Position numbers and translations under genes: made by a program. Of a DNA stretch of 64,000 nt, positions 2,332 through 40,558 are shown piece after piece. Numbering within the stretch: position 1 is the first letter of the stretch; each line of letters opens with the position of its first letter. Source of the DNA: Pseudobutyrivibrio sp. YE44 (GTDB lineage Bacteria; Bacillota; Clostridia; Lachnospirales; Lachnospiraceae); contig NZ_FMXT01000005.1 in NCBI RefSeq assembly GCF_900104335.1, positions 124,001-188,000 of the forward strand, read 5' to 3'. Under the pieces are notes generated by a model, which did no database searches, had not been told where the DNA came from, and saw nothing but the letters and a program-made list of their open reading frames with translations.

Positions 2332-2418
2332 CAAGTGTAATTCACAATCTATTATGTTTCTGAAAGTGACATTCTAAAGTCACTGGAAGAAATATAATGA
2401 TTGTGAATGTAACACTTG
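2332..2418 (+). ncRNA. candidate structured RNA, family A copy 1
   Basis: Intergenic element closed by CAAGTGT (2332-2338) pairing with ACACTTG (2412-2418). Inside, TTCACAATC pairs with GATTGTGAA, ATTAT with ATAAT, TTTCT with AGAAA, and an apical hairpin AGTGAC/GTCACT. The asymmetric internal loop carries TGTAA on the 5' side and TGTAAC on the 3' side, as in copies at 3844 and 5231. It ends 22 nt before the start codon at 2441. Function unknown; no match to a riboswitch class known to me. Confidence 0.7.
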
Positions 2419-2440
2419 CACATAAACTTGGATATAACAT

Positions 2441-3832
2441 ATGAATAAAAATATAAATAATGTTGAGACAAATAAAAAGTTATTCCGCTTTGTAAGTAGC
2501 GTGGTTTTAGTAGCAGTACTAGCCACGCTCTTTGGCGTTATGTGGTATCTGCGCTTGCAGAACCTTATGAATCCATACACAAGATTCATGGGCAAAGGAA
2601 ATTATTTGATGATTGCCCTATATGGAATCCTTACAATTTTGGTGATTAACACCTTCAAGGGGTTCAGTATAGGAAGCGGCAGAATCTCAATTCTTACTAT
2701 GTCACAGGCTATTGCCATGGGGCTTGTAAACGGTCTTGAGTTCATCATCATCATTTTGATGACTCGAATTAAATCTTTAATGTGGATGACACTTGCCTAC
2801 ATCATCGTGCTTACAGTGATTGATGCACTGGCAGTGCTTATTGTTACTTTCCTTTGTACAAAGATTTACCGCATGATCTTCCCACCATTTACAATTCTTA
2901 ACATCTTCGGTCAGTATGAAAACGACCTTGTTATTAAGATGAATCGTCGTGCTGATAAGTACAGAATCACAGGTGAGATGAGCTGCAGAGAGTCTTTGGA
3001 CAAGATTACAAAAGAGCTTCAGAACTACGATGCGGTTCTTATCAACGATGTTCCATCAGAGATTAGAAACGATATTATCAAGGCGTGCTTCGCAACTGAC
3101 AAGCGTGTTTATTTCACACCAAAGATTTCAGACATCCTTATCAAGGGTTCTGACGAGGTGAACCTTTTTGATACACCTCTTTACCTTTGCAAGAATGTTG
3201 GAATGGATGGAATTTCATCAGCTATCAAGCGTGCAGGAGATATTATTATTTCAAGTATTGGAATCATCCTTACATCTCCAATTATGCTTGTGACAGCTAT
3301 ACTTATCCACAATTACGATGGCGGCCCTGTTTTTTATAAACAGACTCGTTGCACCATCGGTGGAAAGGAATACAAAATCATGAAGTTCCGTTCCATGATT
3401 ACTGATGCTGAAAAGGATGGCAAGGCTCGTCTTGCCAGCGTTAACGACGATAGAATCACTCCAATCGGACACTTTATCCGTGCTACACGTATTGATGAGC
3501 TTCCACAGTTCTTCAACATCTTCAAGGGTGAAATGTCTGTGGTTGGTCCTCGTCCAGAGCGTCCAGAAATCATTGCGGAATACGTTAAAGAGGTACCAGA
3601 GTTTGCCTTCCGTACCCACGTAAAGGCTGGCCTTACAGGCTACGCCCAGGTTTACGGCAAGTACAACACCACCTCATACGACAAGCTGAAGCTGGATATG
3701 ATTTATTGTGAGAAATGTTCAGTACTATTGGATATTCAGTTAATTCTAATGACATTGCGCGTAATCTTCACCAAGGATGCCACCGAAGGCGTCGAAGAGG
3801 GTGCAGTCAATGCTAATGTACATAAACAATAA
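2441..3832 (+). CDS. polyprenyl-phosphate glycosylphosphotransferase (initiating enzyme 1)
   Basis: Likely transfers a sugar-1-phosphate from a nucleotide sugar to undecaprenyl phosphate in the membrane, the first step of repeat-unit assembly. Seen: four hydrophobic segments in the first 135 residues, a central soluble CoA-binding-like region, and a C-terminal bacterial sugar transferase domain from about residue 262, with the reentrant helix, FRSM (about 315), TRIDELPQFFN and GPRPERPE (about 369). Length 463 is normal for WbaP/EpsL-type full-length proteins. The start is preceded by only a weak GGA and by structured RNA A1. A second enzyme of the same type lies at 27485, so the window probably serves two polymers or two initiating sugars. 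Sugar specificity cannot be read. Confidence 0.92.
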   Translation: MNKNINNVETNKKLFRFVSSVVLVAVLATLFGVMWYLRLQNLMNPYTRFMGKGNYLMIALYGILTILVINTFKGFSIGSGRISILTMSQAIAMGLVNGLEFIIIILMTRIKSLMWMTLAYIIVLTVIDALAVLIVTFLCTKIYRMIFPPFTILNIFGQYENDLVIKMNRRADKYRITGEMSCRESLDKITKELQNYDAVLINDVPSEIRNDIIKACFATDKRVYFTPKISDILIKGSDEVNLFDTPLYLCKNVGMDGISSAIKRAGDIIISSIGIILTSPIMLVTAILIHNYDGGPVFYKQTRCTIGGKEYKIMKFRSMITDAEKDGKARLASVNDDRITPIGHFIRATRIDELPQFFNIFKGEMSVVGPRPERPEIIAEYVKEVPEFAFRTHVKAGLTGYAQVYGKYNTTSYDKLKLDMIYCEKCSVLLDIQLILMTLRVIFTKDATEGVEEGAVNANVHKQ

Positions 3833-3843
3833 AACTAAAAGTA

Positions 3844-3927
3844 GGTTGTAATTAACAAAATATTACTTCTCTGAAAGCGACATGTTAGGAGCTGTAAGAG
3901 AATGTAATTTTTGTTAATGTAACAACC
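3844..3927 (+). ncRNA. candidate structured RNA, family A copy 2
   Basis: Closed by GGTTGT (3844-3849) with ACAACC (3922-3927). Next helices are TTAACAAAA with TTTTTGTTAA, ATTAC with GTAAT, TCTCT with AGAGA, then a weaker apical hairpin around AGCGAC. The bases differ from copies 1 and 3 in every outer helix yet pairing is kept, while the TGTAA/TGTAAC internal loop and CTGAA are conserved. A ribosome site GAGGG follows at about 3928 and the gene begins at 3946. Confidence 0.7.
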
Positions 3928-3945
3928 GAGGGATAGAATAAGATT

Positions 3946-5154
3946 ATGAAAAAGGCTTTGATGCATGCGCATACTGCGTACATGGTGACACAATTTAATA
4001 TTGATAATATAAAGATTTTGCAGGAGCTTGGCTATACAGTTGACGTGGCTTGCTGTTGGAATGATGATGACAGCGCTTTGAGCCCGGAGGCTATGAAGGA
4101 ACGTCGCAAGAAGCTGGATGAGCTTGGCTGTAGAGTTATTGAGACAGCCAGCCTCAGAAAGTTTTTCAATATCAGCGAGCTTTCAAAGTCTTATAACCAG
4201 CTGAAGACAGAGGTGGAGACAAATCAGTATGAGATTGTCCACACTCAGTCGCCAATCGGCGGTGTTATCTGTAGACTGGCCTGCCGCAAAGCAAGAAAGC
4301 TCTATGGCACAAAGGTTATCTATGCAGCCCACGGCTTCCACTTCTTCAAGGGAGCTCCACTTAAGAACTGGATTGTGTTCTACAATGTGGAAAAGTGGTG
4401 CAGCAAATTCACCGACATGTTGATAACCATTAATAGAGAAGACTACGGTCACGCCAGGAAGTTTAAGGCTAAGAACACTGCCTTGATTCACGGTGCTGGT
4501 GTTGATACCAATAAATTCGTGGCCAGCGATGGGGCCAGAGCCAAGGTTCGTAAGGAGCTTGGTATTGATGATGACACCATCGTGCTCTTATCCGTAGGCG
4601 AGTTGATTCCTAGAAAGAATCACAGCGAGGTTTTAAGAGCGCTGAAGATTATGAAGGAAAACGGCACACTGCTCACACCGGAAAGCGATGAGAGAGTGCA
4701 GCCAAAGTATAAGCTGAAATACTTAATCGCCGGTCGCGGCAAGATTCAAAAGCAGTTGCAGGAAGAAATCAAACATCTTGGACTTGGGGATTATGTTCAG
4801 ATGCTTGGCTTCCGTAGAGACGTGGCTGATGTATTTGCCGCAAGCGATATCTACGTTTTCCCATCTCATCAGGAGGGACTTCCAGTAGCATTAATGGAGG
4901 CGATGTCTGTGGGAATGCCAGTGGTTTGTAGTAAAATCCGTGGAAACACAGATCTTATCACCGATGGAGTGGGTGGATATCTTTTCGATTCCAAAAACGC
5001 TAAAACTCTTGTGGCAGCCTTGGGGAAGGCTTTAGCTGATAGTGATCAGCGCCGCGCAGAGATGGGCGAAACCAACATTGCGACCATGAAGGCGTTTGAT
5101 AAGCAACCTGTCAACGAAGAGATGCGTCAAATTTATAGCAATATAAGTAAGTAG
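3946..5154 (+). CDS. GT4 family glycosyltransferase
   Basis: GT-B fold retaining glycosyltransferase that adds a sugar from a nucleotide donor to the lipid-linked repeat unit on the cytoplasmic face. Seen: N-terminal acceptor domain (about 1-190) and C-terminal donor domain with LLSVGELIPRKNH (about 222) and the EX7E-type motif EGLPVALME at about residue 310, normal for GT4. The 402-residue length is typical. The N-terminal style (MHAHTAYMVTQFNID, then HTQSPIGGVICR) resembles EpsD-like exopolysaccharide transferases. It stands alone between two family A RNA elements, with GAGGG as a ribosome site. Donor and acceptor unknown. Confidence 0.88.
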   Translation: MKKALMHAHTAYMVTQFNIDNIKILQELGYTVDVACCWNDDDSALSPEAMKERRKKLDELGCRVIETASLRKFFNISELSKSYNQLKTEVETNQYEIVHTQSPIGGVICRLACRKARKLYGTKVIYAAHGFHFFKGAPLKNWIVFYNVEKWCSKFTDMLITINREDYGHARKFKAKNTALIHGAGVDTNKFVASDGARAKVRKELGIDDDTIVLLSVGELIPRKNHSEVLRALKIMKENGTLLTPESDERVQPKYKLKYLIAGRGKIQKQLQEEIKHLGLGDYVQMLGFRRDVADVFAASDIYVFPSHQEGLPVALMEAMSVGMPVVCSKIRGNTDLITDGVGGYLFDSKNAKTLVAALGKALADSDQRRAEMGETNIATMKAFDKQPVNEEMRQIYSNISK

Positions 5155-5230
5155 ATTTTGCAGATTATATAAATTCTTTTTGAAAATAATATGTTATGAA
5201 CTTCATAAATTGGGAATTATTTTGAAGAAC

Positions 5231-5315
5231 AGACTGTAACTAACAAGTTAATATGACTCTGAAGGTGACATGTTAGTCACCGTAAGAGAGGTATTGCTTG
5301 TGAGTGTAACAGTCT
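5231..5315 (+). ncRNA. candidate structured RNA, family A copy 3
   Basis: Closed by AGACTGT (5231-5237) with ACAGTCT (5309-5315). CTAACAAG pairs with CTTGTGAG (one mismatch), AATA with TATT, CTCT with AGAG, and the apical hairpin is GGTGAC/GTCACC, which covaries with AGTGAC/GTCACT in copy 1. TGTAA and TGTAAC loop motifs are again present. It ends 22 nt before the start at 5338; a G-rich ribosome site lies between. Confidence 0.7.
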
Positions 5316-7878: not shown

Positions 7879-8021
7879 AAACTATGGATTTGTATATCTA
7901 AACTCCTGACCTTCTTTTTCCATCCCTACTTAGATGGTCCTGAAGGGAGCATCTTATGTAGGGTAATGAGAAAAAGCAGAGCGAAAGCGTGTCAGGAGTT
8001 AGGTATACATAGCCATAGTTT
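7879..8021 (+). ncRNA. candidate structured RNA, family B copy 1
   Basis: Closed by AAACTATGG (7879-7887) with CCATAGTTT (8013-8021), then TGTATA with TATACA and AACTCCTGAC with GTCAGGAGTT. The conserved core holds CTTTTTC/GAAAAAG, CCCTAC/GTAGGG, AGATG/CATCT with a TCCTGAAGGGA hairpin, and a GC-GAAA-GC tetraloop in AGAGCGAAAGCGTGTC. The element ends 15 nt before the start at 8037, separated by TTAGGAG. Not recognised as a known class. Confidence 0.72.
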
Positions 8022-8036
8022 AGGAGTAAATTATTA

Positions 8037-9464
8037 ATGTACACATTATGTTACATGGCCCGTCGCCCTTTTGACGACTTCGCGCCTGCAGTATATAAAA
8101 AGATAAAAGAGAATCACGACAGCGAAACCAAAGGTGTTTTCATCACTTGCGACAGCAAGGAGACCAAATATATCTATGATAAGTTTGGCAAGGATGAGGT
8201 GGTGGTTTGTGAGATTTCAGAGTTCATGAACACTCACTGGGATGAGTTCACTCTTGAGAAGCTTGCAGAGTATGAAAAGAAATACGATGCAGCTCCAATG
8301 TGGAAATACATCTACACTGACAGGTTTTTGATTTACAGAGATTATGATTACTGTGTTCACACAGCCGCTGGTCTCTTCGCATTTTGGGAGCACGTTTTCA
8401 CCACCTACAAAGTAGATTTCTTCTATGACGAGGTTGTGGCTACGCTCCTTACTTACACAGCATATTTAGTTGGTCAGAAGACCGGCACAGGCTATTATTC
8501 ATTAATGTTCATGAGAGCCTGCGGCATGGATTTGACCCATCACTATATTTTGAATGATCCATTCGAGAAGATTTACAACTTCCCAGCGGATTACAAAAAC
8601 GTTCCTGTTACAGAGGAACAGAAGGCAAAGGCCGAGGCTTTCCTTTCAGGTTTTGAGGAAAAGCATTCTAAGCCAGCTTTCATGCAGTTTTCAGGAAAGA
8701 AGCCAAAGTGGAAGGCAAAGTTTTTCGTGCTTCCATTCTTCTATATTAGACAGAAGTACTTCAATCCTTTCACCAGGGACAAGGGCTCATACATTTATTA
8801 CAAGGCCTATGAGCAGACCATGGACGAAATCAAGTGGTACTTCAGATACAAGAAGGCTAAGTCATATTTCAAGAAGGCGGATTTCTCAAAGAAGTTTGTT
8901 TACTTCCCACTTCACCTTCAGCCAGAGGCCACCACAATCGTGTGTGCCCAGAAATATGAAAAGCAGCTGTATTTCATCGACAACTTGGTAAAGTCACTTC
9001 CAGCAGATACAGTGCTTTACGTGAAGGAACATTATTCCTTCCTTGGAATCAGAGACAACAGCTTTTACGAAGCTTTCAGTCAGTATCCAAACGTGGTTCT
9101 TATCGACCCATGGGAGGATTCAATCAAGCTCATTGAAAAGAGTGAGTGCGTTGCCACACTTACAGGCACCGCAGGCCAGGAGGCAATGCTTCTTCGCCAT
9201 CCAGTATTCATGAGCGGCGAGATTGTTTACACCGGCGCCCCAGGCGTAATGAAGCTGGACGAGGTATTTGGAAACTATCAGTCAATGATGGCAAACTACA
9301 AACAGCCAACCCGCGAGGAAATCATCCAGTACCTTGCAGTGTATATGAGTTGCGCCCGGCCAGGCAACACTTACGTAATGAGCGAAGCTCGTCTCGAGGA
9401 CGAAAACATTACGTTGGTTGCTAAGTCAATGTATGATTATTTTGTAGAGCAGAAGACTAAATAA
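8037..9464 (+). CDS. capsule polysaccharide synthesis/export-like protein (KpsS/LipB-like domain)
   Basis: Protein of 475 residues without membrane helices. The C-terminal half (about 285-440) reads like the Capsule_synth family: YFPLHLQPEATT, VLYVKEHYSFLGIRDN, YPNVVLIDPWEDSIKLIEKS and TGTAGQEAMLLRHPV, that is, a Lys-Glu-His donor motif and a TGT-G-EA motif. Families with this domain include KpsS/KpsC-type Kdo transferases and related surface carbohydrate transferases. A glycosyltransferase role is therefore likely but unproven. The N-terminal half is not recognised. The Kdo-like gene trio at 40574-43363 makes a 3-deoxy-ulosonic acid acceptor or donor conceivable. Start fixed by TTAGGAG after RNA B1. 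Confidence 0.65.
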   Translation: MYTLCYMARRPFDDFAPAVYKKIKENHDSETKGVFITCDSKETKYIYDKFGKDEVVVCEISEFMNTHWDEFTLEKLAEYEKKYDAAPMWKYIYTDRFLIYRDYDYCVHTAAGLFAFWEHVFTTYKVDFFYDEVVATLLTYTAYLVGQKTGTGYYSLMFMRACGMDLTHHYILNDPFEKIYNFPADYKNVPVTEEQKAKAEAFLSGFEEKHSKPAFMQFSGKKPKWKAKFFVLPFFYIRQKYFNPFTRDKGSYIYYKAYEQTMDEIKWYFRYKKAKSYFKKADFSKKFVYFPLHLQPEATTIVCAQKYEKQLYFIDNLVKSLPADTVLYVKEHYSFLGIRDNSFYEAFSQYPNVVLIDPWEDSIKLIEKSECVATLTGTAGQEAMLLRHPVFMSGEIVYTGAPGVMKLDEVFGNYQSMMANYKQPTREEIIQYLAVYMSCARPGNTYVMSEARLEDENITLVAKSMYDYFVEQKTK

Positions 9465-9493
9465 GATAATAATTTGGATATTATATAAACTGA

Positions 9494-9709
9494 GGCTTGA
9501 AAAGAAATATATATACTCAATAAAGACCTTCTTTTTCCATCCCTACTTAGATGGTCCTGAAAGGAGCATCTTATGTAGGGGAATATATGACCCAAAAGGC
9601 ATGATTGCTTTAGCAATCAACTTTTGTGGTCTAGTAAGCAAAGCTTACACAAGAAGAAAAAGCAGAGCGAAAGCGTGTCTGTTTGAGTATATATATTTCT
9701 TGAAAAGCC
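9494..9709 (+). ncRNA. candidate structured RNA, family B copy 2, interrupted by a repeat
   Basis: Closed by GGCTT (9494-9498) with AAGCC (9705-9709) and a perfect 19-bp helix between 9502-9520 and 9683-9701. The core motifs of copy 1 recur almost letter for letter (CCATCCCTACTTAGATGG, AGCATCTTATGTAGGG, AGAGCGAAAGCGTGTC). Between the core hairpin and the GAAAAAG strand an extra 62-nt double-hairpin repeat (9587-9648) is inserted, without breaking the pairing. The gene follows at 9733 behind AGAGGAG. Confidence 0.72.
9587..9648 (+). repeat. REP-like double-hairpin repeat, copy 1
   Basis: Contains CAAAAG/CTTTTG, TGATTGC/GCAATCA and GTAAGC/GCTTAC pairings. A copy about 90% identical in the opposite orientation lies at 42282-42343. 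Its position inside RNA B2, absent from B1 and B3, marks it as an insertion. No coding capacity; probably a small non-autonomous palindromic repeat. Confidence 0.75.
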
Positions 9710-9732
9710 GTAGTATTTAGAGGAGATTTAGA

Positions 9733-10710: not shown

Positions 10711-10727
10711 AAATAGCTAAAAAGTAA

Positions 10728-10868
10728 GCATATAAATATAACATAGACAATACATAAGACCTTGATGAGCCATCCCTACTTAGATGGTGCATAGCAGCAT
10801 CTTATGTAGGGCAATGAGCGAATAAGAGCGAAAGCGTGTCGTTGTATGTTTATGTTATATTTAGATGC
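10728..10868 (+). ncRNA. candidate structured RNA, family B copy 3
   Basis: Closed by GCAT (10728-10731) with ATGC (10865-10868) and AAATATAACATA with TATGTTATATTT, none of which resemble the outer helices of B1 or B2. The core again has CCATCCCTACTTAGATGG, AGCATCTTATGTAGGG and AGAGCGAAAGCGTGTC. The flanks AAGTAAGCAT and ATGCGTAGTAT are shared with RNA C1, a member of another family. A longer reading frame with a GTG at 10836 would start inside this structure. Confidence 0.72.
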
Positions 10869-10886
10869 GTAGTATTGAGTAAATTT

Positions 10887-19496: not shown

Positions 19497-19497
19497 A

Positions 19498-27212: not shown

Positions 27213-27352
27213 TTTATCGCGGCAAGTGCTATTAAGCCTATAAATAGAACTTTCATTGATAAATAATGAAGAGACTTAGAGGATGATTTATCGCGGGAAG
27301 CAAAATAAAGTCTATAAATGCGATACTCATTGATAAAAAATCAAGAAAATTG
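27207..27352 (+). repeat. two-unit imperfect direct repeat, about 73 bp each
   Basis: GGATGATTTATCGCGG begins both units (27207 and 27281); later blocks CTATAAAT and CATTGATAAA also recur at matching distance. The first unit includes the stop codon of the aminotransferase gene. Suggests a tandem duplication at the gene end. Confidence 0.7.
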
Positions 27353-27404: not shown

Positions 27405-27441
27405 GAAGAGTAGCTGATTATAAAAACAGCATCTGCAAGTT

Positions 27442-27476
27442 GGAGAAGCTGTCACCGAAGGTGACTGATGAGGTGG
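27442..27476 (+). repeat. palindromic repeat family R1, short copy
   Basis: GAAGCTGTCACC-GAA-GGTGACTGATGAGGTGG, lacking the first hairpin of the full form. AGGTGG at its end is 8 nt from the start codon at 27485 and acts as the ribosome site, as in the copy before 19589. Confidence 0.75.
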
Positions 27477-27484
27477 AATAATTT

Positions 27485-28849: not shown

Positions 28850-28874
28850 TTCGAAATTTAATTTGAAAAAGTAA

Positions 28875-29044
28875 TATAGTAAATATAAAAACTAAGCTTG
28901 TAGGCTACAATGCATATGGGTATTTTTAATATTATTGTAGAGTAAGCTGGTAGGGAACAATGCTTGTTGCTCTTTTTTGAGAGTATAGTGAAAACGATGA
29001 GAAAAAGAGCAAGAAGTATTGTACCTGTAACCAGCGTAGTTTAT
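28875..29044 (+). ncRNA. candidate structured RNA, family D copy 0 (diverged)
   Basis: Core GCTGGT (28946-28951) pairs with ACCAGC (29030-29035); inside, ACAATGCTT with AAGTATTGT and TGCTCTTTTT with AAAAAGAGCA. The outer part has ATAAAAACTA/TAGTTTAT and a CTACAAT/ATTGTAG hairpin. GTAACCAGC and GGTAGGGAACAA match the other D copies, while the apical part differs. The tail GCGTAGTTTATAGAAAGAG is shared with RNA C1. The element overlaps an upstream ATG at 28964, which is therefore unlikely to be the gene start. Confidence 0.6.
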
Positions 29045-29062
29045 AGAAAGAGTAAATTACTT

Positions 29063-30220: not shown

Positions 30221-30255
30221 TGGGATTGCGAGGTAAAGAATTTTAGTATAAGTAA

Positions 30256-30386
30256 GCATTCCAAGTAAACTTGGCAAGCGCGAGGAAGAGGGCCCCATGC
30301 CCTATGGAAGGGACCTACACCGGCGGGAGGGTCCATAGGGCAATGGGAGATGGCTTCCGGGAGCATGATGAACTTGGATGGAATGC
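30256..30386 (+). ncRNA. candidate structured RNA, family C copy 1
   Basis: Closed by GCATTCC (30256-30262) with GGAATGC (30380-30386). GGAAG pairs with CTTCC, CCCAT with ATGGG, and GCCCTATGG with CCATAGGGC at the top. Conserved single-stranded motifs: CTTGGCAAGCGCGAG on the 5' side and CGGGAGCATG plus ACTTGG on the 3' side. The tail GCGTAGTATATAGAAAGAG leads to the hisH-like start at 30410. GC-rich compared with surrounding leaders. Confidence 0.75.
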
Positions 30387-30409
30387 GTAGTATATAGAAA
30401 GAGTAAATT

Positions 30410-31021: not shown

Positions 31022-31105
31022 TAGCAAGAAGAAAGTTTCTAATTATAGAAAAGATGCTAACTAATATTCAACTGGCAGGACTTGAACCTGCAGGGAAAGG
31101 TAGCT

Positions 31106-31876: not shown

Positions 31877-31880
31877 AGGA

Positions 31881-32014
31881 ACAGCCCCTTGACATAGTTG
31901 GAAAGCGTGAGCAAGAGGGCCCCATGCCTAGCTAGGAAGGAAACCGAAGGGGAGGTTGCCTAGCGTAGTATGGGAGATGGCTTGCGGGAGCATGTGAACC
32001 TTGGAGGGGGCTGT
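31881..32014 (+). ncRNA. candidate structured RNA, family C copy 2
   Basis: Closed by ACAGCCCC (31881-31888) with GGGGCTGT (32007-32014). GCAAG pairs with CTTGC, replacing GGAAG/CTTCC of copy 1, a clear compensatory change. CCCAT/ATGGG and GCTAGG/CCTAGC form the upper stem. TTGGAAAGCGTGAG and GCGGGAGCATG are conserved. It ends 11 nt before the start at 32026, the shortest spacing seen, with little room for a ribosome site. Confidence 0.75.
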
Positions 32015-32025
32015 GGTATATATTA

Positions 32026-33264: not shown

Positions 33265-33275
33265 ATTGCTTATAT

Positions 33276-33414
33276 GCTAGACAGCGCATAACCTTGGTAA
33301 GCGCGAGCAGGGAAGTATCATATCATGCTAGGAGGGAGCCGCGAAGCGGAAAGTTGCCTAGCTTGAATATGAGGGGTGCCCTGCGGGAGCACGGAATACT
33401 TGGGACTGTCTAGC
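33276..33414 (+). ncRNA. candidate structured RNA, family C copy 3
   Basis: Closed by GCTAGACAG (33276-33284) with CTGTCTAGC (33406-33414). GCAGG pairs with CCTGC at the place of GGAAG/CTTCC and GCAAG/CTTGC; CATAT/ATATG replaces CCCAT/ATGGG; CTAGG/CCTAG and CCGC-GAA-GCGG form the top. CTTGGTAAGCGCGAG and GCGGGAGCACG are conserved. It begins just after the stop codon of the preceding gene and ends 20 nt before the next start. Confidence 0.77.
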
Positions 33415-33434
33415 AGAAAAGCGAGAGGGAAAAT

Positions 33435-34595
33435 ATGAAAGTTTTACATATAGGCATGCCATCGCATTTTACCGAGGGTATGCTCTACCAAGAAAATATG
33501 CTTATTGCCATGAACGTCAAGGATGGCCACGACACCACCATCATCACCGACGTATACCACTACGAGGGTAGCAACCTGGTGGAAGGTCCAGAGGAGGACC
33601 GCATAATGGATAACGGCGCCCGTCTCATCCGTTTGAAGTATGACCGCGTCTTCTTCAGCGATTTGTGGACCGAGAAAATCCAGAAGTGTCGCAAGCTGAA
33701 GAAATATTTGAACGAGATTCAGCCAGACACCATCCTTTATCACGGTGTGTGCGGATTCGAGATGATGGATGTGGCAGACTATTGCAAGCACCATCCAGAG
33801 TGCCTGTTTTTCATGGATAGCCACGAGGATTATACAAATTCAGCAATGACTCCACTGAGCAAGGCCTTCTATAAAATCATCCATGGTCACTTCGTGCACA
33901 AGGCTTTGCCGGAGGTGGACAAGGTCCTTTATCTGGGCGTGCAGATGCGCGATTGGCTGAAGGATATTTACAACATTCCTGAGAGCAAGATGGAATTTAT
34001 GGCCATCGGCGGCATCATCTATACACAGGAGCAGCAGGCCGAGGCCCGTCAGGACATCATCAATAGATACGCCCTTCCAAAGGATGCAATCATCTTGGCT
34101 CACTCAGGAAAGCTTTCAGCAGGAAAGCGTACAGCCGAGCTTCTTACAGCCTTCAAGCAGATTAATGACCCAAGAATGGCTCTGTTCGTATTCGGCTCAA
34201 TCCCTGAGGAGATGGAAAGCACAATCCGTCCTCTTTTGGATTCCGACAGCAGAATCCATTTCATGGGCTGGAAGGTTAATAAGGAAATTGAGGAGTTCCT
34301 TGCCGGCGTGGATCTTTACTGTCAGCCAGGTGGCCAGTCGTCAACCTTCGAGACTGCTATGTGCTGCGGTTGCGCCAACATGACCTATCCTCATGAGACC
34401 TACAAGGATAAGACTTATTCAGATTGTGACGGAGAGAACTATTTCTTCGTGGATTCTGTGGAGGACATGGTGAAGGTGTTCAAGCAGGTTTCTGAGAACC
34501 CTATGATTCTGGACCAGACAAAGGCAAAATCTTTTGCTTTCGCAAAGCTTCAGTTTGATTATGAGGTTATCGCCAGAAGAATTTACAGCAAGTAA
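33435..34595 (+). CDS. glycosyltransferase, GT4-like
   Basis: Protein of 386 residues with a GT-B layout. N-terminus MKVLHIGMPSHFTEGMLYQE, then YHGVCGFEMMDVADY; donor domain begins near IILAHSGKLSAGKRTAELL (about 218), and CQPGGQSSTFETAMCCGC carries the acidic residue expected in the donor loop. The usual EX7E motif is less clear than in neighbouring enzymes, so it may be a diverged subfamily. Ribosome site GAGAGGG between RNA C3 and the ATG. Confidence 0.78.
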   Translation: MKVLHIGMPSHFTEGMLYQENMLIAMNVKDGHDTTIITDVYHYEGSNLVEGPEEDRIMDNGARLIRLKYDRVFFSDLWTEKIQKCRKLKKYLNEIQPDTILYHGVCGFEMMDVADYCKHHPECLFFMDSHEDYTNSAMTPLSKAFYKIIHGHFVHKALPEVDKVLYLGVQMRDWLKDIYNIPESKMEFMAIGGIIYTQEQQAEARQDIINRYALPKDAIILAHSGKLSAGKRTAELLTAFKQINDPRMALFVFGSIPEEMESTIRPLLDSDSRIHFMGWKVNKEIEEFLAGVDLYCQPGGQSSTFETAMCCGCANMTYPHETYKDKTYSDCDGENYFFVDSVEDMVKVFKQVSENPMILDQTKAKSFAFAKLQFDYEVIARRIYSK

Positions 34596-34629
34596 GAAGC
34601 AAAAAAGAAATGCTATAACCCAAAAGAAG

Positions 34630-34700
34630 ACTGCTAAAAAAGCAATAGTTAAAGAATGCTAATATGAAAAAAAGATTTCTATTAGCAAAAAAATAGCAGT
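34630..34700 (+). ncRNA. possible structured leader (single copy)
   Basis: ACTGCTA (34630-34636) pairs with TAGCAGT (34694-34700) and encloses TGCTAATA/TATTAGCA (34657-34687). A-rich loops. The stem-in-stem layout upstream of a gene resembles families A-D but no related copy was found here, so it rests on pairing alone. Confidence 0.35.
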
Positions 34701-34768
34701 AAATAAATGAGTAATTAACTCACTAGAAAAGCTGTCAAGAAATAAAAGATAGCAAATGAGGAATACAA

Positions 34769-35731
34769 ATGACTAACAAAGAGTTATTTAATAAATTTTG
34801 TGAAGATAATTATGTGTGCATATATTCCAAGCCTTGGTGGCTAGATGCCATCGTAGGTCCTGAGAATTGGGATGTATGGATTTACGAAAAGGGTGGACGC
34901 ATCTGGGCTGCCATGCCTTATTATCTGGAGGATAAAAACGGCGTGAAGCGCATCACAAAGCCACCACTCACTCAGACCAATGGCCTTGTGGTTAGCTACC
35001 CAAAGGACCCACAGTCCTTGGCAAAGCGCGCCAGCTATGAAGAAGAAATTTGCGATGCTGCCATTGAGTTCATCGAGAGCATGGGTCTCGATATCTACGA
35101 GCAGCAGTTTCAATATAAATACACCAACTTCCTGCCTTTTTTCTGGCACCGCTATAGCGTGATTCCTCGCTACACCTATGTCATCGAGGACACCAGCGAC
35201 ATGGAAAAGGTGGATGCTGGAATCAGCAGCAAGTACAAGAACATGATCCGCAAGGGTGAGAAGAACGTGCATCATTTTGGCACTATCGATGCAGACACCT
35301 TCTACACCGAGCATGAAAAGATTTTCGCTCGTCAGGATTTGCCAGTGCCTTTCACACGTGAGCAGTGGATTCGTATATACGAAGCAGCTTACGCTCACAA
35401 CGCAGGTGAGGTTTTCGCAGCACTTGGTGAGAACGACGAAGTTCTTTCACTTAGCTTTTTAGTATGGGATGAGGAGAGCCTCTACCTCGATGCAGGCGGC
35501 CCAATCCCAGAACATTCAAGACTACAGACCTACGATGCATTGGTTCACAAGTCAATCGAAAAGGCTCACGAAAAGGGCTTGAAGTTCGACTTCGAAGGCA
35601 GCGTAGTTAAACAGATAAATCACAGCTTCAGAGAATACGGCGGTCTCCCAGTAGAATACTACCGCTTCCGCAAAGTATTCAATCCAGAGATTATCCGCAA
35701 AGAAGCTGAGGAGACTATAGCAAGACTATGA
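34769..35731 (+). CDS. FemAB/GNAT-type acyltransferase (acetyltransf_6-like)
   Basis: Cytosolic protein of 320 residues. Seen: a first GNAT-like half with KPWWLDAIVGPENWDVWIYE, a basic hinge SSKYKNMIRKGEKNVHHFG, and a second half with VFAALGENDEVLSLSFLVWDEESLYLDAGG and KFDFEGSVVKQINHSFREYG, the pattern of the FemAB/BioF2-like acyltransferases. Members transfer an acyl or aminoacyl group to an amine; here the amine is plausibly on a sugar nucleotide made by the aminotransferase at 26244. Overlaps the next gene by 4 nt (ATGA), indicating coupling. Donor unknown. Confidence 0.72.
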   Translation: MTNKELFNKFCEDNYVCIYSKPWWLDAIVGPENWDVWIYEKGGRIWAAMPYYLEDKNGVKRITKPPLTQTNGLVVSYPKDPQSLAKRASYEEEICDAAIEFIESMGLDIYEQQFQYKYTNFLPFFWHRYSVIPRYTYVIEDTSDMEKVDAGISSKYKNMIRKGEKNVHHFGTIDADTFYTEHEKIFARQDLPVPFTREQWIRIYEAAYAHNAGEVFAALGENDEVLSLSFLVWDEESLYLDAGGPIPEHSRLQTYDALVHKSIEKAHEKGLKFDFEGSVVKQINHSFREYGGLPVEYYRFRKVFNPEIIRKEAEETIARL

Positions 35732-36783
35732 TCGATTTAAAAAACAAAAATATATTAATAATCATGCCCAAATTCTACGCCTACCAGGCGAAGATGAAGG
35801 AGGACCTCCTAGACCGAGGCGCCAACCCTCACTTCTACGATGAGGAGCCAGAGAAGACAAAGTTTCTTATTCTGAAGAACCTTGAGAGCATCTTCCATAA
35901 GAAGAACGTCTTCGATAAGTTCAATCGCCAGCTCACACAGCAGATTTTGGCAGAGGCTCCAGCAGGGGGCTATGATTATTTCCTTGTAATCCGAGGAAAC
36001 GTGCTTACAGAGCAGACCATCACAGAGATTAAGGAAAAGGCACTCAAGCCTACAGGAAAGTCCATCTATTATTCTTGGGATTCCTTTGAAAACATGCGCC
36101 ACAAGGGCGAGATTGGAGAGCTTTTCGACTGGCGTGGAACCTTTGATTCCGTGGATGCAAAGAACAGCGATATGGGTTACGAGCTCCTTCCTCTTTTCTA
36201 TTCAGATGAGTTCGATGCAGAAAAGCTTGAGCCAGTGGAAGAATACAAGTATGATTACGTCAGCGTGTCAGCCTTCTTCCCATTTAGATACAGACAGTTC
36301 AAGGCCTTCAAGGAGGCCAATCCTGATAAAAAGCTTTGCTTGAAGATATACCTGAACCCTAGCGTGTATCGCGGTAAAAAGCTGAAGGACCCAAAGCTTG
36401 TAAAGAACCTGGACATGGATATCATCAGCTTTGAGCCTTTTACTCCAGAGCAGATTCGCGACATGGTGAGAAACTCCAAGGCGGTTCTGGATTTGGCACA
36501 CATCAAGCAGCAAGGCTTGACAATGCGCACAATGGAAACTCTTGGAATCAAGAGAAAACTAGTCACAAACAACATTTATTTACGTGACTACGAGTTTTAT
36601 AATGAGACTAACGATTTAATCCTCGAGGACTTGGAAACCAAGGCCGACGAAGCCGAACGCTCCGGCGACTACAGCGCGTTCACGTTACCAGGCGCCGAGT
36701 GGCTCGACCAACCGTATGCCGAGGACGAGGATATTCGTCGCAAGTATAGCATCCACTCATGGATCGACAACTTGTTCAAGTAG
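35728..36783 (+). CDS. CgeB-like putative glycosyltransferase
   Basis: Protein of 351 residues. The N-terminal half has NILIIMPKFYAYQAKMKEDLL and DYFLVIRGNVLTEQTI; SIYYSWDSFENM follows, where related eps proteins carry the same WDS motif. The C-terminal half has DIISFEPFTPEQIRDMVRNSKAVLDLAHIKQQGLTMRTMETLG-type sequence (split here for length: the acidic residue lies in TMRTMETLG), consistent with a donor-binding GT-B domain of the CgeB/spore-coat polysaccharide family. Annotated by pattern only. Start overlaps the upstream stop, so it is co-translated with the acyltransferase. Confidence 0.6.
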   Translation: MIDLKNKNILIIMPKFYAYQAKMKEDLLDRGANPHFYDEEPEKTKFLILKNLESIFHKKNVFDKFNRQLTQQILAEAPAGGYDYFLVIRGNVLTEQTITEIKEKALKPTGKSIYYSWDSFENMRHKGEIGELFDWRGTFDSVDAKNSDMGYELLPLFYSDEFDAEKLEPVEEYKYDYVSVSAFFPFRYRQFKAFKEANPDKKLCLKIYLNPSVYRGKKLKDPKLVKNLDMDIISFEPFTPEQIRDMVRNSKAVLDLAHIKQQGLTMRTMETLGIKRKLVTNNIYLRDYEFYNETNDLILEDLETKADEAERSGDYSAFTLPGAEWLDQPYAEDEDIRRKYSIHSWIDNLFK

Positions 36784-36812
36784 AATTATTAGATATTTAG
36801 ATTTTTATATGA

Positions 36813-36958
36813 GCATATGGGTCTTACTCATTAATTAACTAAGCTGGTAGGAAACAAGCTCTTAGATGTCTCAAGCGAAGCTTTCTATAGCTGAGCGGAG
36901 ATATCTATGGCTTGTTGCCGTAACCAGCATTGAGAAGTAAAGGTAAGACCCAATATGC
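36813..36958 (+). ncRNA. candidate structured RNA, family D copy 1
   Basis: Outer stem GCATAT-GGGTCTTAC (36813-36827) with GTAAGACCC-ATATGC (one bulged A, to 36958). Core GCTGGT/ACCAGC, ACAAGC/GCTTGT, TCTC/GGAGA with AGAT/ATCT, and an apical AGCT/AGCT hairpin in AAGCTTTCTATAGCTGAGC. The ATG at 36955 lies in the outer stem, so the gene start is placed at 36985. Confidence 0.75.
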
Positions 36959-36984
36959 GGATTAAAACTAGGAGAATTGAGTAT

Positions 36985-37815
36985 ATGAAATACTTAGTAA
37001 CTGGTGCAAATGGATACATAGGCCAAGGCGTCGTCAAGACCATGCTGGACCTGGGCGCTGATGTCATCGCCACAGACTTCCACACAGACGAAGTGGACAG
37101 CAGAGCCAAGCGCATCGACGCAGACCTATTCACATTGGATGACCCATACGGCTATTTCGAAAAGCCGGACGTGGTAATCCACCTGGCATGGCGCGACGGC
37201 TTCCGCCACGCATCACAAAACCACATGCTGGACCTTCCAAAGCACTATGATTTTATTGAAAAGATGTGCCGCGCAGGCATCCGTAAGATGTGCGTCATGG
37301 GAACCATGCACGAGATAGGCTTTATGGAAGGCTGCATCAAGGCAGACACTCCTTGTGCGCCACAGTCCCTTTACGGTATCGCAAAGAACGCACTTCGCCA
37401 AGCAACAATACTTATTTGTAAGGAAACAGGCGTGAAGCTTCAGTGGCTTCGCGGTTATTATATCGTGGGCAACACCCACAGAGGCTGCAGCATTTTCTCA
37501 AAGCTGACAGCAGCTGCCGAGGCAGGAGATGAGACCTTCCCATTCACCACAGGCCAGAACCAGTTTGATTTCACAGACTACGATTTGTTCTGTGAGCAGG
37601 TAGCGAAAGCCAGCATGCAGGATGATGTTCTTGGAATCATCGAGTGCTGCACCGGCAAGCCTATGAAGCTTGCAGACCGCGTGGAGAAGTTCATAACCGA
37701 CAACGGCTACAACATCAGCTTAGCCTACGGCACCTTCCCAGACCGCCCATACGACTCCAAAGCCGTTTGGGGCGACTCACGTAAAATTGACAAGATACTT
37801 ATGGATTGGCATTAG
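36985..37815 (+). CDS. SDR-type NAD-dependent epimerase/dehydratase
   Basis: Sugar-nucleotide enzyme of 276 residues, slightly short for extended SDRs. Seen: TGANGYIGQG at residues 6-15, VVIHLAWRDGF, a catalytic-region segment GTMHEIGFMEG, and YGIAKNAL with the Tyr-x3-Lys pair (about 132). The usual Ser/Thr of the triad may be the Thr in GTMHE. The exact reaction, epimerisation, dehydration or reduction, cannot be told. AGGAG lies 12 nt upstream; a start at 36955 would fall inside RNA D1. Confidence 0.8.
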   Translation: MKYLVTGANGYIGQGVVKTMLDLGADVIATDFHTDEVDSRAKRIDADLFTLDDPYGYFEKPDVVIHLAWRDGFRHASQNHMLDLPKHYDFIEKMCRAGIRKMCVMGTMHEIGFMEGCIKADTPCAPQSLYGIAKNALRQATILICKETGVKLQWLRGYYIVGNTHRGCSIFSKLTAAAEAGDETFPFTTGQNQFDFTDYDLFCEQVAKASMQDDVLGIIECCTGKPMKLADRVEKFITDNGYNISLAYGTFPDRPYDSKAVWGDSRKIDKILMDWH

Positions 37816-37826
37816 TATTTAGATGA

Positions 37827-37975
37827 GCTGGTAGCTATCAAGTACTTAGTTTAAATTGCTAGTAAGCATCAAGCTCTTATATCTCTCAAGTGAAGCTTTC
37901 TATAGCTGAATGGAGAGATATAAGGCTTGTAGCCGTAACTAGCATTGTAGTGTAGATTACTTAATAGATAACAGC
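37827..37975 (+). ncRNA. candidate structured RNA, family D copy 2
   Basis: Core TGCTAGT (37857-37863) with ACTAGCA (37938-37944), CAAGC/GCTTG and a perfect 12-bp helix CTTATATCTCTC/GAGAGATATAAG, capped by AGCTTTCTATAGCT. GCTAGT/ACTAGC replaces GCTGGT/ACCAGC of other copies, a compensatory pair change. Outer pairings (GCTG/CAGC, AGTA/TACT) are weaker. The gene at 37998 follows GGAGG. Confidence 0.75.
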
Positions 37976-37997
37976 GGATTTAGATAATGGAGGATTT

Positions 37998-38951
37998 ATG
38001 AAACCAGTATTATATATTGTTATCCCATGTTACAACGAAGAAGAAGTATTACCAATTACAGCCCCTTTATTCTTAGACAAAATCAAGGAGCTCGTAAGCT
38101 TAGACAAAATTGATGACAAGTCTCGCGTAATGTTCGTAAACGATGGTTCAAAGGACAAGACCTGGGAAATCATCAAGGACCTTGCATCAAAGGAAGAGCA
38201 TTTCGTAGGAATCACACAGAGCCGCAACCGTGGCCACCAGAACGCAGTTCTCGCTGGCCTTATGGAAGCAAAGGAATTGTGCGATATCACAATCTCAATC
38301 GACTGCGATGGTCAGGATGATATCAACGCAATGAACGAGATGGTAGATGCTTACGCAGATGGATGCGAGGTTGTTTACGGCGTCCGCAGCAAGCGTGACA
38401 CAGATACCTTCTTCAAGAGATTCACAGCTGAGAGCTTCTACAAGCTCCTCAACAGCATGGGCGCAGAGGTTGTTTATAACCATGCAGATTATCGTCTTGT
38501 TTCTAGTCGCGTTCTTAACGAGTTCGCAAACTACAAGGAGGTCAACATCTTCCTTAGAGGTATGTTCCCACTTGTTGGTTTCAAGAGCACCAGCGTTTAC
38601 TATGAGAGAAACGAGCGTATCGCCGGCGAGAGCCATTATCCACTTTCAAAGATGCTCAGTCTTGCCTTCGACGGTATCACATCCCTCAGCGTTAAGCCTA
38701 TCAGAATGATTACAGGCTTCGGTGTGTTTGTAGCTTTTGTCAGCCTTGTGCTTCTTGTTTACTCAATCGTTCAGCATATCCTTGGCAACACAAACGATGG
38801 CTGGTCTAGTATCATGGTGGCTATCTGCTTCCTTGGTGGTGTTCAGCTTATCTCCATTGGTGTCATCGGAGAGTATGTGGGCAAGACCTATATGGAAACT
38901 AAAGCAAGACCACGATATATCATTAGTGAGAGAACTTACGATGAGAAATAA
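37998..38951 (+). CDS. GT2 glycosyltransferase, dolichol-phosphate-mannose synthase/GtrB-like
   Basis: Membrane-anchored inverting transferase of 317 residues. Seen: IVIPCYNEEEVLP at the N-terminus, FVNDGSKDKTW, SRNRGHQNAVLAGL, ISIDCDGQDD with the metal-binding acidic motif (about 97-104), and two C-terminal hydrophobic helices (about 235-255 and 270-290). This matches enzymes that load a sugar onto undecaprenyl phosphate for use outside the membrane by GT-C transferases; several GT-C-like proteins lie downstream. Ribosome site GGAGG. Overlaps the next gene by 11 nt. Confidence 0.9.
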   Translation: MKPVLYIVIPCYNEEEVLPITAPLFLDKIKELVSLDKIDDKSRVMFVNDGSKDKTWEIIKDLASKEEHFVGITQSRNRGHQNAVLAGLMEAKELCDITISIDCDGQDDINAMNEMVDAYADGCEVVYGVRSKRDTDTFFKRFTAESFYKLLNSMGAEVVYNHADYRLVSSRVLNEFANYKEVNIFLRGMFPLVGFKSTSVYYERNERIAGESHYPLSKMLSLAFDGITSLSVKPIRMITGFGVFVAFVSLVLLVYSIVQHILGNTNDGWSSIMVAICFLGGVQLISIGVIGEYVGKTYMETKARPRYIISERTYDEK

Positions 38952-40371
38952 AATGGAACCAACCATAGAAAACTTTCTAGCTTTCGAAAGAGAGCACAAC
39001 TGCAACAGCATAGAGATAGAAGGCCTCCACGTATGGGCCCTGTACCGCTATGAAATCCACAACGCCATCAAAAAAGCAGTTGATGGCTGGGGTGGGGCAG
39101 CAAGCAGCGGTGATGAGCAGGCCTACACAAAGAGCGAGCTCATCGCCATGGCTAAGAATGCCTTGAAGCCTTTTACCTATAGAAATGTGGATGTCCTTTT
39201 TATCGGAAACGGCCGCCGCACAAAGAATGTGGACACAGGTGTTTTCGAGGATATCTACTGCGACGAAGTTGCAAAGAAATATAATAGCGTAATACTTGAG
39301 CACCCTGAGAATCACGGACATTGCCAGCCAAATGGTATGGACAATGTCTATTTTACTGACAGGGTAGCTTTTCAGACAAATATAGCGGTGAAGCTGTCGC
39401 GAAAGTTCAACACAAAGACTAGACAGCGCAGAACTAAAGCAGTGACAGAGGTATTCACTCCACTGTTTGAGGCAATCAAGGAAGAGTTTGGCCCAGACCT
39501 TAAAGAAAAGATGATTCCAGAAATCGTAGATAGAATGTACTATGTGGACATCACCAAGAAATTCTGCGGCAAGATTTTGGACAAGGCAAAGCCAAAGCTC
39601 ATCATCGAGATTTGCTATTATACCATGGAAAGTTATGCCATGAGTATCCTAGGGCATGATCGAGGAATTCCAACAGCTGAGTACAGCCACGGATTTGCAT
39701 TCCCAACTCACACTCCTATGCAGTACAACCCAGAGGATCATATCACAGAGCTTCCAGATTACGAGTTGATTTATTCAAAGACACAGCTTCCAATCGTGCA
39801 CTTGCCAGATAATGTGCAGATGCTTACAGTGGGCTTCCCATTTTTTGAAAAGCAGCGTGAGCATTATCAAGCCCTCAATCCAAAGGAAGAAAAGACTATA
39901 TGCTTCATTTCCACCCTTCACGAGGGAGAGGAAATCAGCAAGGTGGCTGCAGCAGTTGCCGAGGCCATCGGCGATGAATATCGAGTTATTTACAAGCTGC
40001 ATCCATTTGAGTTTGCTACTTATAAAGAAAAATATCCATGGACCAACACAGATAAGCTGGAGGTCATTGCCAACAATGGCGAGCACATCTTCAAGTACCT
40101 GGCTGCCAGCTCTGTAGTTGTCAGCGCCCGCACTGCTTCAGTGTGGGAGGGCATCGGCTTCGGCTGTAAGACCATCCTTTTAAATTTTGGTGACACAGCC
40201 GTAAATATGGAGTATTTTATTAAAGAGAAAAACGTACCGCTAGCCGACACCGCCGATGAGGTCGTAGACCTCATCCGTACCGACCGCGCCGGCTTCGTCG
40301 AACCTGATGGCATGTTTGAACCCGACGCTATGCGTAACATCTGTGGGTTTATTGATAGATTCGTAAAGTAA
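38941..40371 (+). CDS. capsule synthesis-like protein, putative glycosyl/polyol-phosphate transferase
   Basis: Soluble protein of 476 residues. The C-terminal half has TICFISTLHEGEEISK, YRVIYKLHPFEFATYK (Lys-x-His-Pro motif), and a later run VVSARTASVWEGIGFGCKTI, the layout of the capsule-synthesis and CDP-glycerol transferase-like group that binds a nucleotide donor. N-terminal half unrecognised. Start taken as the ATG at 38941 inside the upstream stop region; the ATG at 38953 is an equally possible start. The open frame extends back to 38737 but that part overlaps the GT2 gene and is not coding in this frame. Confidence 0.65.
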   Translation: MRNKMEPTIENFLAFEREHNCNSIEIEGLHVWALYRYEIHNAIKKAVDGWGGAASSGDEQAYTKSELIAMAKNALKPFTYRNVDVLFIGNGRRTKNVDTGVFEDIYCDEVAKKYNSVILEHPENHGHCQPNGMDNVYFTDRVAFQTNIAVKLSRKFNTKTRQRRTKAVTEVFTPLFEAIKEEFGPDLKEKMIPEIVDRMYYVDITKKFCGKILDKAKPKLIIEICYYTMESYAMSILGHDRGIPTAEYSHGFAFPTHTPMQYNPEDHITELPDYELIYSKTQLPIVHLPDNVQMLTVGFPFFEKQREHYQALNPKEEKTICFISTLHEGEEISKVAAAVAEAIGDEYRVIYKLHPFEFATYKEKYPWTNTDKLEVIANNGEHIFKYLAASSVVVSARTASVWEGIGFGCKTILLNFGDTAVNMEYFIKEKNVPLADTADEVVDLIRTDRAGFVEPDGMFEPDAMRNICGFIDRFVK

Positions 40372-40379
40372 ATAAATGA

Positions 40380-40558
40380 GCTGGTAATTAAAGTATAAAT
40401 AGCTTGTGCTTAATAATGTAAATAGCTGGTAGACATCAAGCTCATATATGTCTCAAGCGATGCTTTCTATAGCAGAGCGGAGACATATATGGCTTGTAGT
40501 CGTAACCAGCTGTATTAAGAGTAAAGAACACAAGCGGGTGATAGAGTAAAGAACCAGC
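40380..40558 (+). ncRNA. candidate structured RNA, family D copy 3
   Basis: Two nested GCTGGT/ACCAGC stems: outer 40380-40385 with 40553-40558, inner 40425-40430 with 40505-40510. GCTTGTG pairs with CACAAGC and TTAATA with TATTAA between them. Core CAAGC/GCTTG, ATATATGTCTC with GAGACATATAT, capped by TGCTTTCTATAGCA, where TGCT/AGCA replaces AGCT/AGCT, keeping pairing. Followed by TTAGGAG and the start at 40574. Confidence 0.77.

What the first reader, a model, noticed from the sequence alone, without database searches (positions are those of the whole stretch)
2332..40558. Thirteen stem-closed RNA elements in four families, spaced between genes of one polysaccharide region
Seen directly: families A, B, C and D, each of 3-4 copies, sit only in intergenic gaps and end 10-40 nt before a start codon. 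Family members cluster in neighbouring gaps (A 2332-5315, B 7879-10868, C 30256-33414, D 28875-40558). Helices covary within families. I do not recognise any as EAR, ops/JUMPstart, a riboswitch or a T-box. Hypotheses: repeated processive antitermination or transcription-support sites in a long operon (compare EAR RNA and LoaP-dependent hairpins); mRNA processing or stability sites that set the level of each gene; or recombination joints for cassette exchange.
Basis: partly seen in the sequence, partly recalled or inferred. Interest (0 to 1): 0.92.

Follow-up and report, generated by a model that had tools for sequence, protein, structure and literature searches.

The report
Swappable RNA hairpins between operon genes
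A rumen bacterium and its close relatives carry well over a hundred folded RNA inserts, mostly in the gaps between neighbouring genes; they come and go quickly and swap with one another, yet the RNA fold of at least one family is kept by natural selection, which makes them a new, testable kind of gene-gap element.

Summary
All thirteen elements are present, with covariation in all three models built; double changes in paired columns were reached by 0 of 500 shuffles. Rfam has no family for them. Family A is a divergent branch of D, leaving three superfamilies. They are not tied to the polysaccharide region. The genome, a Pseudobutyrivibrio, gives 95 D (of 102 matches), 12 B and 28 C copies, many in housekeeping gene gaps that read as pgk/tpiA, fabH/fabK, thyA/folA, argJ/argB.

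Copies with similar cores sit in closing stems whose sequence is private to the locus (strongest in B). In B, transition mismatches inside the stem are 58 G.U to 1 A.C, so selection acts on the sense RNA. At fabH/fabK in 28 loci of the genus the gap is empty, a bare hairpin, or B, C or D. Between two species about 94% alike, 9 of 11 comparable junctions differ.

Best reading: BOX-like, fast-turnover repeats adapted to the stop-to-Shine-Dalgarno gap, folding most of it into one closed hairpin before the next gene's ribosome site. How they spread and what they do to translation are inferred.

The parts
2333..2417 (+). element A1 (divergent D superfamily), GH25/sugar-transferase gap
   Evidence: R1 48.5 bits, E 8e-12; fold
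3840..3921 (+). element A2, sugar-transferase/GT4 gap; a counterpart in the same gap of G002 with different but paired stem letters
   Evidence: below R1 threshold
5232..5314 (+). element A3, GT4/GT4 gap
   Evidence: R1 41.9 bits
7870..8020 (+). element B1 with its locus-specific closing stem; core 7904-7993
   Evidence: R2 90.7 bits; fold
9490..9720 (+). element B2; core pieces 9521-9583 and 9655-9679 around an inserted palindromic repeat (about 9584-9654); closing stem intact
10735..10870 (+). element B3; core 10754-10840; overlaps the GTG-started ORF call, so the true start is probably downstream
   Evidence: R2 111.2 bits; fold
28870..29045 (+). element D1 (divergent); best match 28946-29035; overlaps the TTG start of ORF 28964, so the true start is probably downstream
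   Evidence: R1 41.5 bits; fold
30250..30400 (+). element C1; core 30271-30368, upstream of a class I glutamine amidotransferase ORF (Pfam; hisH-like by my reading)
   Evidence: R3 72.6 bits; fold
31878..32022 (+). element C2; core 31898-31995
   Evidence: R3 100.8 bits
33275..33425 (+). element C3; core 33294-33394
   Evidence: R3 104.2 bits
36812..36955 (+). element D2; core 36843-36928; base motif ATGAGC...GCGGATT
   Evidence: R1 104.4 bits; fold
37826..37975 (+). element D3; core 37858-37943
   Evidence: R1 104 bits
40376..40570 (+). element D4; core 40425-40510 inside an outer framed hairpin GAGCTGGT...ACCAGCGGATTAGGAG
   Evidence: R1 110.2 bits; fold

Best explanation
These are small, dispersed, fast-turnover genetic elements of the genus Pseudobutyrivibrio that live mainly in the gaps between co-directional operon genes and act as RNA. 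Each has a conserved apical core (superfamily D/A, B or C) on a closing helix whose sequence is private to the locus (long and near-perfect in B, shorter in C, short in many D). A minority also keep a base motif: 5' TTARRTGAGC, at or near the upstream stop codon, and 3' GCGGAYTAG running into the Shine-Dalgarno of the next gene. Shown: structure, dispersal, locus-specific stems, RNA-strand selection on the B stems, interchange of cores and presence/absence at orthologous junctions. Inferred: the helix folds out most of a roughly 190-nt insert so that its foot stands just upstream of the Shine-Dalgarno. This keeps the next gene translatable, either by a fresh ribosome or by one that has just finished the upstream gene. 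Also inferred: cores spread and replace one another by recombination, gene conversion or an unidentified mobilising enzyme. The elements may be parasites tamed by selection rather than regulators.
For: Own-genome counts, lower bounds because only 138-150 candidates were scored: D 102 matches (95 kept by me, 38 bits or more), B 12, C 28. B in 24 of 29 and C in 27 of 29 genomes of the genus, own included. D and C in 0 of 149 other genomes of the family, with stricter filters; exact B pattern in 31 stretches of the GTDB collection, all Pseudobutyrivibrio or B. fibrisolvens 16/4. Closing arms: B own partner best in 11 of 11, mean -30.3 against -9.4 kcal/mol for swapped arms; C 11 of 17, D 6 of 30; 0 of 5000 permutations in each. 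B inner-stem transition mismatches 58 G.U to 1 A.C over 69 loci, 32 to 1 by distinct context; whole arms 66 to 3. Sense orientation between co-directional genes: B 31 of 34, C 27 of 38 distinct, D 13 of 30. Among the 63 such rows with a scorable helix, it encloses a median 73-87% of the gap by set, foot a median 10-17 nt before the start codon. fabH/fabK junction states. Bare hairpin in G023 with nearly the same outer stem that carries a B-type core in G006. D to C swap, core-deleted mini-D, and a D element at a stop/start junction that is an overlapping TAATG in the sister species. 9 of 11 comparable junctions differ.
Against: The strand-asymmetry test fails for C in the larger set (13 G.U to 19 A.C); I judge it to have little power there, because C stems are short and the aligner ran into the base motif, but RNA selection is not shown for C. 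D flanks give 7 to 6. Besides the transitions, the B inner stems hold 67 other mismatches. D sits antisense or between convergent genes in 16 of 30 own loci, where bridging to a Shine-Dalgarno cannot apply. The base motif, which I read off these same copies, reaches my threshold in only 26 of 60 copies on the 5' side and 22 of 60 on the 3' side. No mobilising enzyme was found: Y1 transposase hits occur in 10 of 29 genomes and are absent from element-rich ones; other transposases were not surveyed. No target-site duplication was evident, and none was searched for systematically. Direction of change (gain or loss) was not polarised. No expression data.
Confidence: 0.55

Rival explanations
1. Host-useful mRNA processing or stability sites: the intergenic hairpins are cut by a double-strand-specific RNase, or block exonucleases, and so set the relative level of each gene in an operon.
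For: Long near-perfect helices private to each locus, kept at RNA level in B, in the sense strand of operon gaps; bare hairpins without a core exist.
Against: The same junction is short and empty in 12 of 28 loci at fabH/fabK, and 9 of 11 junctions differ between close species; this does not look like a needed dosage setting. It does not explain why the cores are conserved.
Confidence: 0.2
2. Purely DNA-level repeats (MITE- or REP-like); RNA structure is a by-product of palindromic DNA.
For: Dispersal, presence/absence and rapid turnover, nesting of D in D; C and D flanks show no strand asymmetry.
Against: B stems: 58 G.U to 1 A.C on the sense strand. Closing arms are unique to each locus, unlike conserved terminal inverted repeats. 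Strong orientation bias of B and C.
Confidence: 0.13
3. Processive antitermination or transcription-support sites (as proposed for LoaP or EAR systems) repeated along long operons.
For: Repeated along the same strand of long gene clusters in the window; structured.
Against: Rarely between divergent genes (5 of 102 distinct contexts); not restricted to long or polysaccharide operons; orthologous operons do without them; no EAR match in Rfam.
Confidence: 0.06
4. Recombination joints for exchange of gene cassettes (attC-like folded sites: conserved ends, private stem).
For: Conserved end motifs with private stems resemble attC architecture (recalled, not tested); clustering by family; the polysaccharide block carries A at different gaps in different species.
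Against: Gene order around the elements is conserved (fabH before fabK in 27 of 28 loci and fabD after it in 27 of 28, by eye, the rest cut by contig ends) while only the elements change.
Confidence: 0.06

Closest known systems
BOX, RUP and SPRITE repeats of Streptococcus pneumoniae (PMC3049150; abstract and found passages seen)
   Same: Dispersed small intergenic repeats with extensive predicted RNA structure, largely confined to a species and its close kin, probably parasitic, co-transcribed with genes and thought likely to affect their expression.
   Different: Here the outer stem is private to each locus and, in B, kept by RNA-strand selection; cores of different families swap at one junction; where the base motif is kept, the ends run into a stop codon and a Shine-Dalgarno; turnover between close species is fast, whereas the paper reports a slow current rate of new insertion.
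MITEs and REP/BIME elements (PMC10969869, PMC2817692: search listings and starts of abstracts only)
   Same: High copy number, short, palindromic, non-coding, intergenic.
   Different: No conserved terminal inverted repeats; the RAYT-type Y1 transposase family is absent from element-rich genomes.
Intercistronic structure and translational coupling in operons (review PMC12548453, found passages only)
   Same: Structure between neighbouring genes that can influence translation of the downstream gene.
   Different: The cases in the passages seen are individual junctions; the review reports coupling falling with distance, which is the problem a fold-out helix would solve.
EAR and LoaP antitermination RNAs (recalled)
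   Same: Structured RNA in polysaccharide operons.
   Different: No Rfam match; rarely in leader-like position; not operon-specific.

Membership tests
BOX/MITE-type small interspersed repeat | many dispersed non-coding intergenic copies in one genome | tested here: met
BOX/MITE-type small interspersed repeat | confined to one species or genus | tested here: met
   Searches (B, exact pattern; D; C), the last two on 150 genomes with stricter filters; the D model was not run over the whole genus
BOX/MITE-type small interspersed repeat | conserved terminal inverted repeats | tested here: not met
   closing arms pair within, not between, copies; the base motif is short and present in a minority
BOX/MITE-type small interspersed repeat | target-site duplication | tested here: inconclusive
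   none evident by eye in the presence/absence pairs; gap sequences too diverged
BOX/MITE-type small interspersed repeat | mobilised by a transposase with matching ends | not tested
   only Y1 transposases surveyed
REP/RAYT | Y1 (RAYT) transposase in the genome | tested here: not met
   19 of 29 genomes lack PF01797, including G002, G003, G004 and G011, which carry elements; the four own-genome hits are partial and at or near contig ends
EAR/LoaP or other Rfam family | match to a curated RNA family | tested here: not met
   no match at gathering in the window, none overlapping A-D up to E 10; in 10 further loci one chance-level match, mir-586 at 25 bits (cut-off 89, E 0.33), overlaps the D copy of L145
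intrinsic terminator | G+C-rich hairpin followed by a U-tract | tested here: not met
   T-tract after B 0 of 10 and C 2 of 10 copies (7 of 8 T), D between co-directional genes 1 of 13 (6 of 8 T); met for 5 of 8 D copies between convergent genes
integron attC site | conserved R boxes and an integron integrase | not tested
   no search made; gene order at element junctions is conserved

The most novel reading that the evidence does not exclude
A genus-wide system of modular intercistronic RNA cassettes: a resident locus-specific hairpin, anchored at the upstream stop codon and the downstream Shine-Dalgarno, receives and swaps apical RNA modules (B, C, D/A) by recombination at the hairpin. Inserts can carry their own stop codon and ribosome site, so they can enter an overlapping gene pair without silencing the second gene; the helix then works as a translation bridge. 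That would be a class of mobile element selected to be operon-compatible at the RNA level.
Probability: 0.25. Interest if true: 0.9.

Novelty: new variant of a known kind. Interest (0 to 1): 0.74.

Why it matters
Operon gaps are usually thought too constrained to host repeats. Here well over a hundred structured inserts turn over quickly, many in housekeeping operons, and in one family the paired arms evolve freely in sequence while pairing is kept on the sense strand only. That gives an unusually clean natural experiment on how RNA folding in an intercistronic gap affects translation coupling, mRNA decay and the tolerance of mobile DNA. The orthologous empty, bare and filled junctions are ready-made constructs. 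It also warns that covariation alone does not imply a regulatory RNA family.

Tried and rejected
Rejected: (1) a known Rfam family. (2) Polysaccharide-specific control: the elements are genome-wide. (3) A hammerhead-like reading of the separate GGCTTCCCC...CTGATGAGG repeat: resemblance from memory only, no Rfam match. (4) The base motif alone as a genome finder: with a 6-bp helix it gave 19 hits against 3-20 for ten altered motifs, so it is not specific (an 11-bp version found 1). (5) Y1 transposase as the mobiliser. (6) Strand asymmetry for C: small sets gave 4 to 1 and 9 to 2, the larger set 13 to 19; I make no claim for C. For D it is 7 to 6 on flanks and 10 to 3 in cores of co-directional copies (alignment fitted to the model and row filter imperfect, so weak).

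Rows dropped: one search left out one B copy (interrupted B2) and one C copy (no anchor). One search skipped loci under 3000 bases and counted two own C copies twice (L224, L251); I corrected C from 29 of 40 to 27 of 38; 63 of 73 co-directional rows had a scorable helix. One search used 95 of 102 D matches (dropped 3 antisense duplicates and 4 matches of 31-33 bits), 12 of 12 B and 20 of 28 C. In one search, 4 of 13 G003 elements had no flank in the G002 stretches and were not counted; one further junction with an odd span was rechecked and does lack the element in G002. In the D alignment 10 of 67 rows are matches on the opposite strand of the near-palindrome. At fabH/fabK the D in L152 is by eye only, below the model's threshold. 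The shuffles kept base composition only.

Literature: (open-access library only) listed no paper that I recognised as describing these elements; subscription journals are not held.
Full report
WHAT IS THERE. The window is G000:C12:124001-188000 of a 3.24-Mb genome. All thirteen elements are found. Rfam has no match on them. Core covariation on larger alignments is strong: B 79 distinct rows, 13 of 21 pairs with a change on both sides; C 43 rows, 12 of 25; D 63 rows (10 of the 67 matches lie on the opposite strand of near-palindromic copies), 29 of 32. No shuffle of 500 reached the number of double changes, and sliding the partners by 1-3 columns destroys the signal (in C the count of further pair types was reached by 4 of 500). 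These alignments were fitted to the models and lean towards the structures; the first MAFFT alignments already showed compensatory changes in 10 of 32 (D), 9 of 25 (C) and 6 of 21 (B) pairs. Family A is a branch of D: the D model finds two of the three A copies, and A-type relatives in other species fold the same way.

NOT A POLYSACCHARIDE SYSTEM. The own genome has 102 D matches at E up to 0.01 (95 kept), 12 B and 28 C (lower bounds, as only part of the first-look candidates was scored). Neighbouring proteins read as FabH/FabK, FabF/FabZ, Pgk/TpiA, ArgJ/ArgB, ThyA/FolA, LeuC/LeuD-like and LivG/LivF (names by my reading of the translations, not by a database search). B occurs in 24 of 29 and C in 27 of 29 genomes of the genus, own included. 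Of 150 genomes spread over the family, only the own genome has D or C at the thresholds used, with filters that lose weak matches.

LOCUS-SPECIFIC STEMS. B copies whose matched stretches are 80-97% identical sit inside helices of unrelated sequence. With 35-nt flanks, each B 5' arm pairs best with its own 3' arm in 11 of 11 copies (mean -30.3 against -9.4 kcal/mol for other copies' arms), C in 11 of 17, D in 6 of 30; 0 of 5000 permutations reach the observed sum in any family. In a second count B own arms score 10 or more in 69 of 71 and swapped arms in 51 of 568; C 48 of 68 and 33 of 544.

RNA OR DNA? A palindrome kept as DNA should collect G.T and A.C mismatches alike on the sense strand; a helix kept as RNA should tolerate G.U and purge A.C. 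Using an aligner blind to that difference, the inner helix of 69 B loci (of 71) shows 58 G.U to 1 A.C, 32 to 1 by distinct context, against 58% expected from composition (p about 5e-7); whole arms give 66 to 3. There are also 67 mismatches of other kinds. Three contexts make up 21 of the 58 and may be one conserved wobble; the remainder stand at 37 to 1. Some loci are orthologs, so contexts, not loci, are the safer count. For C the test is uninformative or negative (13 to 19; stems short), and for D flanks it is 7 to 6. So RNA-level selection is shown for B only.

PLACE IN THE OPERON. Sense between two co-directional genes: B 31 of 34, C 27 of 38 distinct, D 13 of 30; divergent pairs are rare (1, 3 and 1) (simple ORF calling). 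In the 63 co-directional rows with a scorable helix, the helix encloses a median 73-87% of the gap by set, and its foot is a median 10-17 nt from the start codon. A base motif that I read off these copies, TTARRTGAG on the 5' side (8 or more of 9) and CGGAYTAG on the 3' side (7 or more of 8), is found in 6 and 4 of 12 B, 6 and 8 of 18 C, and 14 and 10 of 30 D copies, against 1.0 and 0.8, 1.4 and 1.2, 2.2 and 1.7 in composition shuffles. D between convergent genes often has a T-rich tail (5 of 8) and an A-rich head (5 of 8), as in bidirectional terminators, against 1 and 2 of 13 between co-directional genes.

SWAPPING AND TURNOVER. fabK with its flanks was retrieved from 28 of 29 genomes. By my reading the fabH/fabK gap is short and empty in 12, a bare framed hairpin in 2, D in 4 (one of them, L152, by eye only), B in 5, C in 1, a B remnant followed by D in 1, a short remnant in 1, an interrupted D-like form in 1, and cut by a contig end in 1. 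At fabK/fabD, G006 carries a B-type core inside nearly the same outer stem that in G023 is a bare hairpin; G004, G011 and G014 share another outer stem there; in G004 the fabH/fabK and fabK/fabD elements share core and inner stem but not outer stem. What look like scars remain: a GCGGATTAGGAG ribosome site without an element in G005, and a TTTAGATGAG fragment in G012 and G022. Between G002 and G003 (94.5% identical over 34 kb; about 183 kb of BLAST pieces), 2 of 11 element-bearing junctions with both flanks are shared and 9 differ. One is a D to C swap, two hold a core-deleted mini-D on one side, and one has D where the sister has overlapping TAATG. In the polysaccharide block GH25-sugar transferase-GT4-GT4 the own genome has A in all three gaps, G002 only in the second, G001 in the first but not the second (third not seen). 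Same-family neighbours within 6 kb exceed chance (36 of 49 against 29.0; p 0.016; B below 5e-5, C 0.003). The window's clustering is therefore best read as local spread or gene conversion, which is inference.

MECHANISM. Shown: the architecture, the strand-specific constraint in B, the interchange and the turnover. Inferred: the helix collapses the gap and presents the ribosome site; the elements are parasites made operon-compatible rather than regulators; cores move between stems by recombination or gene conversion. I found no mobilising enzyme; Y1 transposases are in 10 of 29 genomes and missing from element-rich ones, and no other transposase was surveyed. Whether insertion or loss dominates at each junction was not polarised by a tree.

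COMPARISON. BOX, RUP and SPRITE of pneumococcus (PMC3049150: abstract and found passages) are the nearest kind: small repeats with extensive structure, confined to close relatives, likely parasitic, co-transcribed. The present elements lack conserved terminal repeats, have private stems and swap cores, and a minority end in a recognisable stop-codon and ribosome-site frame. The review on translational coupling (PMC12548453, found passages) states that coupling falls with distance, which is why a fold-out helix in a 190-nt gap would matter.

Noticed in passing
window 19542-19590, 27434-27482, 43374-43422: Another palindromic repeat (GGCTTCCCC..GGGGAAGCTGTCACCGCAGGTGACTGATGAGG) in three gaps; superficially hammerhead-like (from memory) but no Rfam match.
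   Followed up: no
window about 9584-9654 and 42283-42344; L128 fabK/fabD gap: A further short palindromic insert (..AAAAGG.TGATTGC..GCAATCAACTTTTGTGGTCTAGTAAGC..GCTTAC) found inside B copy 2, alone in another gap (inverted), and in place of the apex of a B element in G028.
   Followed up: partly
window 605-1018; 27203-27350: Tandem 207-nt duplication inside the GH25 ORF, and a 74-nt tandem repeat in an intergenic gap.
   Followed up: no
window about 44884-44930: Strong hairpin followed by T7 upstream of the ORF at 45007; looks like a terminator.
   Followed up: no
L082 2938-3087: Rfam TwoAYGGAY RNA just above its gathering score (44.3 against 43), outside the D element of that locus.
   Followed up: no
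G002:C11 about 32900-33235 and the G003 counterpart: Array of short palindromes (ACTACTGCCTGA..AACTAGGCAGTAGT) that differs between the two species.
   Followed up: no
window 10836 and 28964: The longest-ORF starts (GTG, TTG) of two genes overlap elements B3 and D1; the real starts are probably downstream.
   Followed up: partly
G010:C48:73928/74091, G028:C1:368870/369029, G022:C11:313885/314044, G026:C28:3140/3298, G012:C16:75691/75844: Pairs of B elements in opposite orientation within about 165 nt of each other, in five genomes.
   Followed up: no
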